From the IMG/VR virus record IMGVR_UViG_3300006038_000006, positions 1 to 33,593 of that record: DNA of 33,593 nucleotides; one strand, given 5' to 3'. Source of the DNA: a virus. The translations under genes and the position numbers were made by a program. A model generated the notes under the pieces. That model saw nothing but the letters and a program-made list of their open reading frames with translations. It was not told the DNA's origin and searched no databases. Below, in pieces: positions 27 to 28,783 of this stretch (position 1 is its first letter; each line of letters starts with the position of its first letter).

Positions 27-103
27 GGCGGGGTAGCTCAGGTGGTTAGAGCAGCGGAATCATAATCCGCGTGTCGGGGGTTCAAGTCCCTCTCCCGCTA
101 CCA
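27..103 (+). tRNA. tRNA-Met (anticodon CAU), elongator type
   Basis: The 77-nt sequence folds as a full cloverleaf. It has a 7-bp acceptor stem (GGCGGGG with TCCCGCT, two G-U pairs), a D arm GTAGCTCAGGTGGTTAGAGC, a 5-bp anticodon stem GCGGA/TCCGC around the loop ATCATAA, a T arm with loop TTCAAGT, and an encoded CCA end. The anticodon is CAT. The Watson-Crick-type first pair and the D arm fit elongator Met rather than initiator. A tRNA-Ile with lysidine-modified CAU cannot be fully excluded. It is probably a host gene, lying just outside the prophage end proposed at about 121. Confidence 0.95.
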
Positions 104-19824: not shown

Positions 19825-20334
19825 TCAGCGGGAGGAATAGCGTTGCACGAAACCGAAGACGGTCTCGGCGATCATCGCTTCGTCATCCGACGATATACCG
19901 AGGAAGGGGCGTGCGGGCAAGGTAACACTGTCGGCTTTGATAAGGTTCCCGCCGATCCGGAACCAGAGATGCGTTGCCCGAACCGGTACGATCGTCGCGC
20001 CGAACTGGTGAGCGGCCGCGTAAATCACATCGGTGCCCACCTGCACCTCGTCATTACCAGCCTTGGCGTTGATGCTGTTTCGAAGCCGACCACTTTCCGT
20101 CAGGATGCGGGAATTGCGCTTGTCCTCGGCATATCCCTCATTCAGGGTTTTCCACGCTTGGCCTTCCGGATCGGTTTGCGTGACGAAGCGCATATGCGTC
20201 GAACCGACAAGGCCGACGCCGATCGCGCGCATGACGGGCGTCGTGTTCGTCATCAGGCCTTCGAGCTGGCGGAAGCCGCGCCGGACTTCCGAATCGAGAA
20301 CCTGTGCCGTGATCGAGATAGAAGCGCCGCTCAT
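19825..20334 (-). CDS. Virion morphogenesis protein (Mu gpG-like), 169 aa
   Basis: This fits the phage virion morphogenesis family (Mu gpG, P2 gpS): ISITAQVLDSEVRRGFRQLE at the start, GQAWKTLNEGYAEDKRNSRI with the usual L-E-SG-L-NSI pattern after it (LTESGRLRNSINAKAG), and YAAAHQFGA near residues 105-115. It acts in tail completion or head-tail joining. The ATG at 20334 has only a weak AAAGG before it. An upstream GGG-containing extension of six codons is possible. A 106-base gap lies before it, with a 5-bp hairpin at 20393-20406. Confidence 0.92.
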   Translation of the reverse strand: MSGASISITAQVLDSEVRRGFRQLEGLMTNTTPVMRAIGVGLVGSTHMRFVTQTDPEGQAWKTLNEGYAEDKRNSRILTESGRLRNSINAKAGNDEVQVGTDVIYAAAHQFGATIVPVRATHLWFRIGGNLIKADSVTLPARPFLGISSDDEAMIAETVFGFVQRYSSR

Positions 20335-20392
20335 ATTTGCCTTTCGGCCCAAACGGCCTTATGTTCATATCTGACGCGCCGAGCAGGAAGCG

Positions 20393-20406
20393 CCGCCTTC
20401 AGGCGG
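20393..20406. repeat. Short hairpin between F-like and G-like genes
   Basis: CCGCC and GGCGG enclose a four-base loop TTCA. No T tract follows on either strand. It is the only structure I see in the 106-base gap between the head morphogenesis gene and gpG. Confidence 0.3.
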
Positions 20407-20440
20407 ATTGGGACCAGGCGATTTCCGGCCCCCCGGCGTG

Positions 20441-21658
20441 TCATTTCCATTCCACCCCGAAATTCCGCAGGATGTTGCGCCGCTCGGTACGCCGCAGCGA
20501 TGTCAGCCACACTTCCTGACGGTTGTCCTTCTTCACGACCTTGACGGCGGCGTGATACAGTTTGCCTTCATATTCCCCGACGAACGCGGGACGCCCGTTC
20601 CTGTCGCGCAGCAACTTTCCGCCCTTGACGAGTTGCCCTGGTAAAACGCCGTAGCCGTCCGGCGTGATCGTGTCGTGATGCATGTGGCTTCGGATTGTGT
20701 CTGCCGACAGGCGGATTTCCGTGCCCGCCGCGACATCGAGGGCAGCGCTTACCGTCTTGTTTGTCGTCGCGACTGGCGTCCAGCTGCCGTCCGGCCACTT
20801 TCCCTTTAGAGCCGATTGAACGAAGGCGGCAACTTGTGCCTGGTCGGCACTGACCGCCTTCGGACCAGGTGCTGTTTGCGATAGCCAGGCAGCACCCGGA
20901 TTGTAGGCGAAGGACGGATCGATACCCCGTGGCTGATCCGTTCCGAGCTGGTCAAGGTTCGGGGGCGTATCCGGTCCCGACTTGCCGAGGCGTCGAAGAC
21001 CAGGACGAGACACCGGCGTCACGAAGCAACCGCACCGGTAGCCGTTCGGCGGGTACATTTTCGCCCAGACCGGATCGGTGGCCTCGTAGCATTTACCGTT
21101 CCAGGCCTTGTGCTCCAGACGCGGATGCAATGCCCCGGAATGATTGTACATCCAGTACGGAAACGCTTCGAGCGTCTCCGGGGCTGACATCTGGGCGTAA
21201 CGGCCGGCCGCGTAGGCGGTGCTGAGATTGGTTTCGAAGATGATGCGGGAGCGCCAGCCGCGTGAACCATTATACTGCCAGCCGTGGCGCGCGACGATCG
21301 CATCGAAGTCGGCGCGGAAATCTTCAAGCGTCAGGCCCTGTTCGGCGGCCTTGACGATGGCCGCCTGGAAGTCTTCGACCAGCGCCTTTTTGTTTGCGCC
21401 GGCCACCATGAACATCTTCGAATGCGCGGCGTCCCAAACATCGCGATGGCTTGTCGTGGGGATGGCAGTTTTCTGGCGAAGAAAGTCGATCGCCTCATCA
21501 AACGGCAGATTGATCGCGCCCACTGTCGTCGCCATCATAGCAACGACCAAAGGCTTAAAAATTGAAGGCGGTTTAAAGGCCGTGGAAGCGTTTTTCGGGC
21601 CTGAAGCTACGGATGCCGCAAAAAGCCCCCTGAAGCGCGCCAGCGGGCCTCCTCTCAT
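20441..21658 (-). CDS. Mu gpF-like head protein with C-terminal PBECR-type nuclease domain, 405 aa
   Basis: Residues about 45-220 form the MuF head-morphogenesis domain, with INLPFDEAIDFLRQKTAIPT, NLSTAYAAGRYAQM and the late NGYRCGC motif at 205-211. The C-terminal 90 residues (EIRLSADTIRSHMHHDTITP, FVGEYEGKLYHAAVKVV, WLTSLRRTE) resemble phage-Barnase-EndoU-ColicinE5-RelE-like domains. His325, His327 or His328 and Thr386/Ser387 are candidate catalytic positions. Such MuF fusions are known as phage-borne polymorphic toxins. The ATG overlaps the portal stop (ATGA), with AAGAGG before it. A later start at Met41 or Met42 is possible. No immunity gene is obvious next to it. Confidence 0.85.
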   Translation of the reverse strand: MRGGPLARFRGLFAASVASGPKNASTAFKPPSIFKPLVVAMMATTVGAINLPFDEAIDFLRQKTAIPTTSHRDVWDAAHSKMFMVAGANKKALVEDFQAAIVKAAEQGLTLEDFRADFDAIVARHGWQYNGSRGWRSRIIFETNLSTAYAAGRYAQMSAPETLEAFPYWMYNHSGALHPRLEHKAWNGKCYEATDPVWAKMYPPNGYRCGCFVTPVSRPGLRRLGKSGPDTPPNLDQLGTDQPRGIDPSFAYNPGAAWLSQTAPGPKAVSADQAQVAAFVQSALKGKWPDGSWTPVATTNKTVSAALDVAAGTEIRLSADTIRSHMHHDTITPDGYGVLPGQLVKGGKLLRDRNGRPAFVGEYEGKLYHAAVKVVKKDNRQEVWLTSLRRTERRNILRNFGVEWK

Positions 21659-23265
21659 GACTGCCTCTTGAGGTCATCAATGAGCGCGGCCTGCCCGATC
21701 AGGTGCGCCATCGTCATGCCGCGCGCCATGGCTTCCGCGAGATCCTCGGCCGACAATTTGAGATCCGCGAGTTTGTGCGCCGCCTCCCGAAGGTCCGTGG
21801 CCGAAAACAGGATATCGCGGACTTCATCAATCATGCCGTCCATGGCGGCGGCCGCGTCCTTCTCCAGCCGGTCGGTCAGCTTTTCGAGCAGGTCCGGTTC
21901 CTCGCGGGAATGCGCCGAGGCGAACAGTCGATCGAGGCTTTGCTTCGCGGTCAGCGGTTTTGGCTTGTCCTCGGGCGGAACGACCGTCTCACGTCCGCCG
22001 ACCAAATCGGCCCCGGCCGCAGGTGTCGGAATGCCGAGGCGGTCACGGAGAAAGCTGGCCTCGGCCGTCAGGCCATGCTTGGCGAGCTTGTCGAAAGCTT
22101 CCGAAAATTCCTTCAGTGGGACTTCGTCCGGGCGACCGACATGGATGGTCGGGTATTCGTCCTGGGGGCCGAAGTTGAAGGCGATGATATTGGGGGCGAG
22201 CTGCGCATTGAGCGTGTCGGAAGCGTCGAGCGCATCGGAACGCTCGATATCTTCCTGGACAAGGCGATGTTCCTTGGCAACGGCATGGCCGCCGGAAACA
22301 GCGTCCGTCGTTGTGGTCTGGCCAAGGATCAGCTTGGAAATCTCGCGATTGTGCCAGTCGGCCCGGCTCTCATACATGTCCGTCGAGCTGCTCTTGGAAC
22401 CAACCTCGTGGAACTCGATCAGCATCTCGCGCGGTATGATCGCGGCGCAGTCACCAGCGATGCCCGATACGGCTCGCCACAACACATCCTTTTCCGGTTC
22501 GGTCGCGCCACGGCCGTATTTGCCGATGCGGATCGGCTGGCCGTAATTCTGAAGGAAGATCGCCCAATCCTTGACCGTGAAGCTCTTGAACATCCAAAGC
22601 CAGACGGCAACGCGGGCAATGCCCGACCGGATCGTCAGGCCGGACTTTGCCTTCGAACGATGGACAACGAACTTGTGCGGAATGAGCGGCTCACCGGCAA
22701 CGCCCTCGCGCAGCAGCAAGGTTTCGCCATCTGTGCGGTCGAACGTGAACCAGCGCTGGGTCCGCCAGACCAAAGCGCGTGGGAGCACCTTGCCGTTCTT
22801 GTGATGCCAATCCACCTCCATGACGGAAATGCCCTTGCCGATCGCATCGAGCATGTCGAAGAGGCCGGAGCGCAACACGCCTGTCTTGATCCACTCGCGC
22901 AAGAATTCGGCATGCTTCTGGTGCTCTGGACTATCCGACGCGGGGTTAACGGTGATTGGCAACTGCGAAACCGATCGGCGGCGCGTGGCGAGCTGCGCGA
23001 GATAATGGCTATCGCGCTCCTCGATGTCTTCCGCCAGTTCAAAATAGGCTTCCACTTCGCCCTGGTCAGCAGCGCGCAGAATTGAGGCAAGCTTGATCGG
23101 CGTCATGCCATCGGCCGGATGCCCGGAAATCCACTGACGGACACCGCCTACATGCGCGCCGGCGACCTCTTCCTCCAACTCGGCCGCACTAACGACCTTG
23201 CCGTCCTGATCCTTCATGGAGCTGGCGAGGTGACGAGAAATCTTCTGCTTCTTCTTTTTCGCCAT
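21655..23265 (-). CDS. Portal protein (Mu gp29-like, DUF935), 536 aa
   Basis: This forms the DNA entry ring of the head. After a basic N-terminus (MAKKKKQKISRH), characteristic segments are RAADQGEVEAYFELAEDIEE and DSHYLAQLATRRRSVSQLPI, near residues 70-105. VMEVDWHHKNGKVLPRALVW follows, then the C-terminal SEAFDKLAKHGLTAEASFL and RDRLGIPTP part. This is the DUF935 portal pattern. The start overlaps the terminase stop as TGATG. Order and length match Mu. Confidence 0.95.
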   Translation of the reverse strand: MAKKKKQKISRHLASSMKDQDGKVVSAAELEEEVAGAHVGGVRQWISGHPADGMTPIKLASILRAADQGEVEAYFELAEDIEERDSHYLAQLATRRRSVSQLPITVNPASDSPEHQKHAEFLREWIKTGVLRSGLFDMLDAIGKGISVMEVDWHHKNGKVLPRALVWRTQRWFTFDRTDGETLLLREGVAGEPLIPHKFVVHRSKAKSGLTIRSGIARVAVWLWMFKSFTVKDWAIFLQNYGQPIRIGKYGRGATEPEKDVLWRAVSGIAGDCAAIIPREMLIEFHEVGSKSSSTDMYESRADWHNREISKLILGQTTTTDAVSGGHAVAKEHRLVQEDIERSDALDASDTLNAQLAPNIIAFNFGPQDEYPTIHVGRPDEVPLKEFSEAFDKLAKHGLTAEASFLRDRLGIPTPAAGADLVGGRETVVPPEDKPKPLTAKQSLDRLFASAHSREEPDLLEKLTDRLEKDAAAAMDGMIDEVRDILFSATDLREAAHKLADLKLSAEDLAEAMARGMTMAHLIGQAALIDDLKRQS

Positions 23266-28411: not shown

Positions 28412-28783
28412 TTAGAACATTTCAATCTGGCGGGGGTCTGTCTTTCGCCTGGACTTAAGCGGCTCCCGTTTTCGGGCGCGCTTCAAAAGTCTTTCAACAC
28501 CGCTTTCCGTCAAACCGAGACGTTTGGCAATATCGCGGTTGCTCATTTCGGCATCGACATAACGACGGGCGCGAAACTCGCGTGCCAGAGGCACTCTTAT
28601 ATATCCGCCCGGATAGGCTTTGGCTAGACGGTATGCAGCATCAACGCCGATCGTCGAAGGAAGTTCACTTCGCTCGGGATCGGCAGGGACATAGAGCCTG
28701 ACGCCGGCATGTGCTTCGACCAGGGAGAAGAAGCCGTCTTCGCCAAGCGTCGATAGCAGATCAAGGGTGAGATCATCGGCCAC
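28412..28783 (-). CDS. Mor-like transcription activator candidate, 123 aa
   Basis: The layout resembles Mor/C activators of Mu: an N-terminal dimer region with HAGVRLYVPADP (a G-x-x-x-Y-x-P pattern) near residues 25-36. A C-terminal helix-turn-helix, NRDIAKRLGLTESGVERLLK near 82-101, is followed by basic RARKREPLKSRRK. It lies just before the lysis and packaging genes, where Mor or C sits in Mu. It probably activates middle or late transcription. Similarity is partial, so a different HTH regulator is possible. Confidence 0.68.
   Translation of the reverse strand: MADDLTLDLLSTLGEDGFFSLVEAHAGVRLYVPADPERSELPSTIGVDAAYRLAKAYPGGYIRVPLAREFRARRYVDAEMSNRDIAKRLGLTESGVERLLKRARKREPLKSRRKTDPRQIEMF

What the first reader, a model, noticed from the sequence alone, without database searches (positions are those of the whole stretch)
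20441..21658. Head protein F fused to a toxin-like nuclease domain
The MuF domain is followed by about 90 residues with the pattern of phage-Barnase-EndoU-ColicinE5-RelE-like domains, including a His-rich SHMHHD motif. MuF polymorphic toxins are a known class. This would be a virion-carried RNase or a capsid-linked effector in a rhizobial phage. There is no obvious immunity gene next to it, which raises the question of how the producing cell is protected.
Basis: partly seen in the sequence, partly recalled or inferred. Interest (0 to 1): 0.7.

Follow-up and report, generated by a model that had tools for sequence, protein, structure and literature searches.

The report
Phage head protein with nuclease-like tail
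A minor head protein of a Mu-like phage carries a tail predicted to fold like bacterial RNA-cutting toxins, and in its relatives the putative cutting residues come and go together with a small hairpin-forming DNA/RNA element right behind the gene, which may be the nuclease's partner or antidote.

Summary
In detail: window 20441-21658 (minus strand) encodes F, a MuF domain plus a C-terminal ~135-residue domain (271-405) containing SHMHHD. No Pfam/NCBIfam model hits that domain, but its AlphaFold model (pLDDT 93) matches RelE/BrnT/CdiA-CT toxins (BECR fold). His in the first BECR helix and Ser in the last strand fit the published PBECR active site; Mu F itself is a published MuF-PBECR fusion, so the fusion is a known kind.

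New here: among 54 distinct homologous F proteins, H325, H328 and K373 are all present in 31, all absent in 21, mixed in 2. The domain moves as a cassette (14 state changes on the MuF-domain tree, 13 on the downstream G tree, 3 on its own tree). In 29 of 29 non-Helicobacter carriers of the triad a covarying ~70-nt hairpin element starts at the F stop codon; 0 of 23 others have it. It is not in Rfam. No immunity ORF lies there.

What the element does is unresolved: antidote RNA, cognate site of the domain, or independent central DNA site. It also occurs, inverted, in four mini-Mu elements without F, and pair statistics show no sense-RNA bias. The reading is partly supported.

The parts
20441..21658 (-). 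gene F (405 aa): MuF minor head protein with C-terminal nuclease-like domain
21020..21373 (-). Phage_Mu_F domain (residues 96-213)
   Evidence: Pfam PF04233, E 4.1e-11
20444..20848 (-). C-terminal BECR/PBECR-like domain (residues 271-405)
   Evidence: AlphaFold model pLDDT 93.4, pTM 0.87; BECR-toxin neighbours in PDB
20675..20686 (-). H325-x-x-H328, end of first BECR helix and the loop after it
   Evidence: triad with K373 present in 31 of 54 relatives, absent in 21, mixed in 2
20540..20542 (-). K373, in the second-last strand; covaries with H325/H328
   Evidence: strand 96-107 of the model
20498..20500 (-). S387, in the last strand (the Ser/Thr position of PBECR)
   Evidence: S in 45 and T in 2 of 54; strand 110-120 of the model
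20373..20442 (-). hairpin/pseudoknot element; its first two bases are the GA of the F stop codon TGA
   Evidence: covariance model R1 85.6 bits; covariation test; no Rfam match at gathering threshold
19825..20352 (-). gene G (virion morphogenesis, Phage_tail_S); likely ATG at 20334
   Evidence: Pfam E 1.2e-33; alignment of starts
21655..23265 (-). portal (Portal_Mu), overlaps the F start
   Evidence: Pfam E 8.2e-101

Best explanation
The C-terminus of F is a PBECR-like domain (BECR/RelE-type fold) that behaves as a swappable virion-borne effector cassette. The MuF part places it in the head and presumably sends it into the next cell with the DNA (inferred from Mu and published MuF proteins). 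In the version carried here, H325, H328, K373 and S387 probably form a metal-independent RNase active site (inferred). The cassette includes the ~70-nt hairpin/pseudoknot element that starts at the F stop codon. I propose that this element is the nucleic-acid partner of the domain: most simply an RNA made with F on the same message, which keeps the nuclease in check until it is packaged, in place of the immunity protein of other MuF toxins. When the catalytic residues are lost the element is lost too. Shown: the predicted fold, residue covariation, cassette exchange, base-pair covariation, and coupling of triad and element. Not shown: RNase activity, packaging, ejection, binding, antidote function.
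For: Fold: pLDDT 93.4; leading PDB matches are BECR toxins: BrnT Z 6.9, 7vd7 Z 6.6, CdiA-CT 7m5f Z 5.1, then RelE and other CDI toxins; Foldseek probability 0.96-0.97 for 7m5f and 7vd7. Active-site layout matches the published PBECR description, His in the first helix and Ser/Thr near the C-terminus (PMC5512222 passages). Triad all-or-none in 52 of 54 relatives. Cassette exchange: DNA identity between window and L004/L006-L008 is about 80-98% in portal and F N-terminus, falls to 57-74% in codons 301-390 and 10-50% across the end of F and the F-G gap, and returns to 94-97% in early G; state changes 14/13/3 on N-domain/G/C-domain trees. Element: 29 of 29 non-Helicobacter triad carriers, 0 of 23 others; at least two independent joint losses on the C-domain tree, with different F-G junctions; covariation 40 double-change cells against 10.8 +/- 2.6 shuffled, 0 of 500; element divergence follows the C-domain better (rho 0.60) than G (0.44) or MuF (0.32).
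Against: No Pfam/NCBIfam match to the domain; Foldseek finds no PDB match at E <= 0.001 and VIA Z stays below 8. The fold persists in relatives without the triad, so a structural role is possible. The element also lies, inverted, in four mini-Mu elements without F (L206, L207, L208, L223) and one remnant (L169), and once after a HipA-like gene: it is not tied to F alone. Outside one fixed pair, G-U cells (10) are fewer than A-C cells (23), which does not suggest a sense-strand RNA. Two Helicobacter triad carriers lack the element. Triad and element adjoin, so linkage in one cassette could give the coupling without interaction; on the N-domain tree only 4 independent pairs lie on well-supported branches, 3 going the same way and 1 not differing.
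Confidence: 0.42

Rival explanations
1. The domain is a PBECR-like nuclease or its relic, but the element is an independent central DNA site of Mu-like transposing genomes, comparable to the strong gyrase site of Mu near genes G and I, and it is coupled to the triad only because both sit in one exchanged segment.
For: Mu's gyrase site is annotated between G and I at 0.487 of the genome (PMC10052514 passages). The element lies at a mean 0.50 in 10 contigs. In the mini-Mu elements it lies between the early genes and I, in the other orientation. Pair statistics show no sense-RNA bias.
Against: F-G is central in Mu-like genomes anyway (Mu 0.474), so position alone tells little. The 17 virus records without the triad that were searched whole, 12 of them 38.8-44.8 kb, lack the element everywhere. 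A gyrase site would not explain covarying hairpins and a loop-loop pairing. The Mu G-I region gives no R1 match (L109).
Confidence: 0.22
2. The element is a cis-acting mRNA structure that sets G translation or mRNA stability; phages without it couple F and G translation by overlapping stop and start codons.
For: 16 of the 22 rhizobial-type F genes lacking the element have an F stop codon that overlaps the G start; carriers have a separate G leader after the element.
Against: In L104 the element stays behind F although another ORF follows. It occurs inverted and away from G in mini-Mu elements. It follows the C-domain rather than G.
Confidence: 0.16
3. The C-domain is a plain structural or DNA-pilot domain on a BECR scaffold, and the triad is a binding rather than a catalytic site.
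For: A relative without the triad keeps the predicted fold (pLDDT 93). F is annotated as a DNA pilot in Mu.
Against: A stand-alone relative (L134) and the Helicobacter versions keep His, Lys and Ser at these places. Some Mu-like F proteins lack any such extension (YPCBV-1, 263 aa), so it is not needed for head building in general.
Confidence: 0.2

Closest known systems
MuF-PBECR fusions, including phage Mu F (gp30) with its MuF_C domain (Iyer et al. 2017, PMC5512222)
   Same: MuF head protein with a C-terminal BECR-type domain; His in the first helix and Ser/Thr near the end
   Different: No curated PBECR/MuF_C model matches the window domain; best weak profile match is PBECR3; a second His and a Lys covary with the first; linked hairpin element
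MuF polymorphic toxins (Jamet et al. 2017 PMC5576092; Apk2 PMC12226406; Bxa PMC11699363)
   Same: Variable C-terminal effector module behind a MuF domain in temperate phages, exchanged between relatives
   Different: No small immunity ORF follows; a structured nucleic-acid element lies there instead; activity untested
Type III toxin-antitoxin systems (ToxIN, CptIN; abstracts in the listing)
   Same: An RNase-type toxin gene next to a structured, pseudoknotted RNA
   Different: A single element behind the gene, not repeats; different predicted toxin fold (recalled for ToxN); inhibition untested
Mu strong gyrase site
   Same: A nucleic-acid element at the centre of a Mu-like genome, next to genes F, G and I
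   Different: Covarying hairpins; absent from sister phages of the same size; no R1 match in Mu

Membership tests
[quoted passage not shown]
   Predicted model: helices, then strands 78-81, 87-93, 96-107, 110-120; leading PDB neighbours are BECR toxins. A prediction, Z below 8
[quoted passage not shown]
   H325 ends helix 49-55 of the model, H328 lies just after it; S387 in strand 110-120
PBECR (phage BECR nucleases) | Match to a curated PBECR or MuF_C model | tested here: inconclusive
   None for the window domain; Helicobacter relative weakly PBECR3, E 0.021, below cut-off; pairwise hhalign PBECR3 E 0.0013 (probability 18%), MuF_C 0.022, PBECR2 0.46, unrelated G control 0.076
MuF proteins | Phage_Mu_F domain in the head gene cluster | tested here: met
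MuF polymorphic toxins | Small immunity ORF directly downstream | tested here: not met
   F is followed by the element and G; no conserved ORF in the gap
MuF polymorphic toxins | Exchange of C-terminal modules | tested here: met
MuF polymorphic toxins | Toxic activity of the C-terminal domain | not testable with these tools
   needs expression
Type III toxin-antitoxin | RNA antitoxin in repeats | tested here: not met
   one element per phage in 9 of 9 triad-carrying virus records searched whole
Type III toxin-antitoxin | RNA inhibits the toxin | not testable with these tools
   needs biochemistry
Mu strong gyrase site | Gyrase binding and cleavage at the genome centre | not testable with these tools
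   only the central position was checked

The most novel reading that the evidence does not exclude
A virion-borne PBECR-type RNase of a MuF head protein is kept harmless in the producing cell by a structured nucleic acid encoded at its own stop codon, an RNA in place of the protein immunity of known MuF toxins. The same element, carried by F-less mini-Mu satellites, would then serve as orphan immunity or as a stolen recognition tag. A close variant is that the element is the specific recognition site of the F C-domain.
Probability: 0.28. Interest if true: 0.88.

Novelty: new variant of a known kind. Interest (0 to 1): 0.62.

Why it matters
MuF-linked effectors are known mostly by prediction, and in the cases read here their protection means an immunity protein. 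Here the putative catalytic residues of the effector and a structured nucleic-acid element are gained and lost together across cassette swaps, which makes 'how is the producing cell protected' directly testable with one domain and one 70-nt element. If the element is an antidote or a cognate site it would be a new way for a phage to control a packaged nuclease, and the mini-Mu elements that carry it would be a natural test of phage-satellite exploitation.

Tried and rejected
A coding explanation for the F-G gap was rejected: ATG ORFs of 30 aa or more in or near the gap vary in length and strand and are missing in several relatives. A known RNA family was sought: Rfam gives nothing at gathering threshold except a tRNA at the window end; HgcE at 24.7 bits (gathering 50) on the opposite strand is below cut-off. 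A similar structured region behind F in the Helicobacter phages: L106 folds somewhat better than shuffles (z -2.58), L105 does not (z -0.17), and the Azospirillum locus does not (z -0.02), so no claim is made. An intrinsic terminator seems unlikely because no T-run follows the element. A REP-like genomic repeat was rejected: 10 places in 9 of 394 Rhizobiaceae genomes and 1 of 397 genomes of the order, the centre genome itself. A sequence search of solved structures with the domain profile gave one chance-level hit (E 0.51). A search for the domain in 289 genomes of the class found 2. A match in Rhodobacter phage RcWaterboi (L107) was dropped as spurious: the frame lies opposite to the annotated F gene. 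The R1 match L149 (32.4 bits, inside other ORFs) is treated as chance.

Literature: I read search listings and passages of PMC5512222, PMC5576092, PMC10052514, PMC11699363 and PMC12226406, no whole paper. Searches for MuF with RNA antitoxin, Mu-like with gpT and RNA motif, Mu-like prophage with Agrobacterium, Rhizobium and hairpin, and structured RNA with Mu-like phage or Rhizobiales showed no title describing this element; nothing wider is claimed.

Full report
What is there. The window is a Mu-like virus record. F (20441-21658, minus strand, 405 aa) lies between a Mu-type portal gene and G, followed by I and T. Residues 96-213 are a Phage_Mu_F domain. Residues 271-405 match no Pfam or NCBIfam model.

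What the C-terminal domain is. I collected relatives with F and then with the domain. After collapsing identical C-terminal 380 residues and dropping one spurious frame (L107), 54 distinct proteins remain: 2 from Helicobacter phages, 1 from an Azospirillum plasmid, 51 from Rhizobiaceae genomes or from IMG/VR contigs of unstated host. Every one also matches the N-terminal part of F (residues 1-265). An AlphaFold model from 47 aligned domains has pLDDT 93.4 and pTM 0.87. The leading PDB neighbours are RNase toxins of the BECR/RelE type: BrnT Z 6.9 (2.7 A over 76 residues), 7vd7 Z 6.6 (3.5 A, 86), CdiA-CT 7m5f Z 5.1 (3.4 A, 89), then RelE and CDI toxins. Z stays under 8 and Foldseek gives no PDB match at E <= 0.001, so the fold rests on consistency rather than on one strong hit. 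Among viral models a 410-residue protein without a name aligns at TM 0.72 and 2.4 A, and other matches are labelled nuclease, minor capsid or polyvalent proteins. Iyer et al. describe PBECR domains with a His in the first helix and a C-terminal Thr/Ser, and place one at the end of Mu F (passages); the window domain has H325 at the end of that helix and S387 in the last strand. The nearest family by profile is PBECR3, weakly.

The triad. At H325, H328 and K373, 31 of 54 proteins have all three, 21 have none and 2 are mixed (L098: N, D, K; L108: Q, H, K). A model of a triad-less version (L069) has nearly the same secondary structure with pLDDT 93.1 and the same leading PDB neighbours.

The domain is exchanged. 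Between the window and L004, L006, L007 and L008, DNA identity is about 80-98% in portal and the F N-terminus, falls to 57-74% in codons 301-390, is 10-50% across the end of F and the F-G gap, and is 94-97% again early in G. The triad state needs 14 changes on a tree of the MuF part (53 proteins; shuffled mean 17.5; at least 4 forced by starred branches) and 13 on a tree of G (50 proteins; at least 8 forced), but 3 on a tree of the C-domain itself with the triad columns left out (54 proteins; shuffled mean 17.8, 0 of 500 as low). On the C-domain tree the six proteins L069, L070, L071, L073, L078 and L089 (Q at position 325) group with the window's clade with high support, so their loss is separate from the others: at least two losses. 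Other Mu-like F proteins carry other C-termini: PBECR2 in RR1-B and JBD25, a weak MuF_C match in Mu, none in the 263-aa F of YPCBV-1.

The element behind F. In the 29 triad carriers outside Helicobacter, F and G are separated, and a ~70-nt element begins at or near the F stop codon, or overlaps it (L104); in the 22 rhizobial-type proteins that do not carry the whole triad, F and G overlap or nearly touch. A structure with four helices and a loop-loop pairing fits 93.3% of cells in 25 distinct sequences. There are 40 double-change cells against 10.8 +/- 2.6 in shuffles (0 of 500), and slid versions pair only 40-46%. The covariance model R1 finds one strong match in the window (85.6 bits; the next three are 21.3 bits or less, on the other strand). 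It finds it in none of the triad-less loci given to it, in none of the 17 triad-less virus records searched whole, and exactly once in each of 9 triad-carrying records. The two Helicobacter records and the Azospirillum locus have none. It is not an Rfam family at gathering threshold.

Searching with the element first. In 394 Rhizobiaceae genomes R1 matches 10 places in 9 genomes. Five lie behind triad-carrying F genes, three in small Mu-like elements, one behind a HipA-like gene with no Mu-like gene found near it, and one is weak. A pattern scan of virus contigs gave 54 stretches, of which 20 pass R1: 18 are on contigs already in the set, one is a new triad-carrying F (L159), one a second place in a known contig, next to G and T without I (L169). 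A further small Mu-like element turned up in the genome behind L057-L059. The small elements (L206, L207, L208, L223) carry I- and T-like genes, a gene like window 28412-28783 (Mor-like) and, where seen, A-, B- and GemA-like genes (the names Mor, A, B and GemA are recalled, not from a database hit). No terminase, portal or F homologue was found in the stretches examined, and the element is inverted relative to I.

How it may work. The coupling of triad and element, their joint loss, and the element following the C-domain better than its neighbours (rho 0.60 against 0.44 and 0.32) suggest that the element belongs to the domain. The simplest version is an RNA antidote made with F, because no immunity ORF exists. 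Evidence against this version is told plainly: inverted copies in F-less elements, no sense-RNA bias in pair changes (10 G-U against 23 A-C cells outside one fixed pair), and central position as for the Mu gyrase site. I therefore keep three readings open (antidote RNA, cognate site, independent central DNA site) and put about even odds on a direct functional link.

Verdict. The new part is the all-or-none triad and its linked structured element.

Noticed in passing
L206, L207, L208, L223 (unnamed Rhizobiaceae genomes): Small Mu-like elements with similar gene order: early genes, inverted hairpin element, I- and T-like head genes, Mor-like gene, no terminase/portal/F seen; they look like mini-Mu satellites carrying their own capsid gene.
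   Followed up: partly
L146 / L205 (element at L205 5001-5071): A copy of the element begins a few bases after the stop codon of a HipA-like gene (HipA_C E 3.9e-45), with no Mu-like gene found nearby.
   Followed up: partly
L169 1652-1721: Second copy of the element on the contig that also holds L066/L187, inverted, between G and T with I missing and a ParB-like gene upstream.
   Followed up: partly
L134 1525-1857: Stand-alone 110-aa relative of the F C-domain with His, Lys and Ser kept, placed just before a G-like gene.
   Followed up: partly
L105, L106 (Helicobacter prophage records): F proteins with the full triad and long stretches before G, without the rhizobial element.
   Followed up: partly
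window 27-100 (+): A tRNA gene (Rfam tRNA, 59.3 bits) at the very end of the window, next to the phage genes.
   Followed up: no
window 20335-20372 (-) and relatives: A conserved AATATA(A/G)G-like stretch and a small GC hairpin between the element and the G start codon, seen in the F-G context of most carriers and not behind the inverted copies.
   Followed up: no
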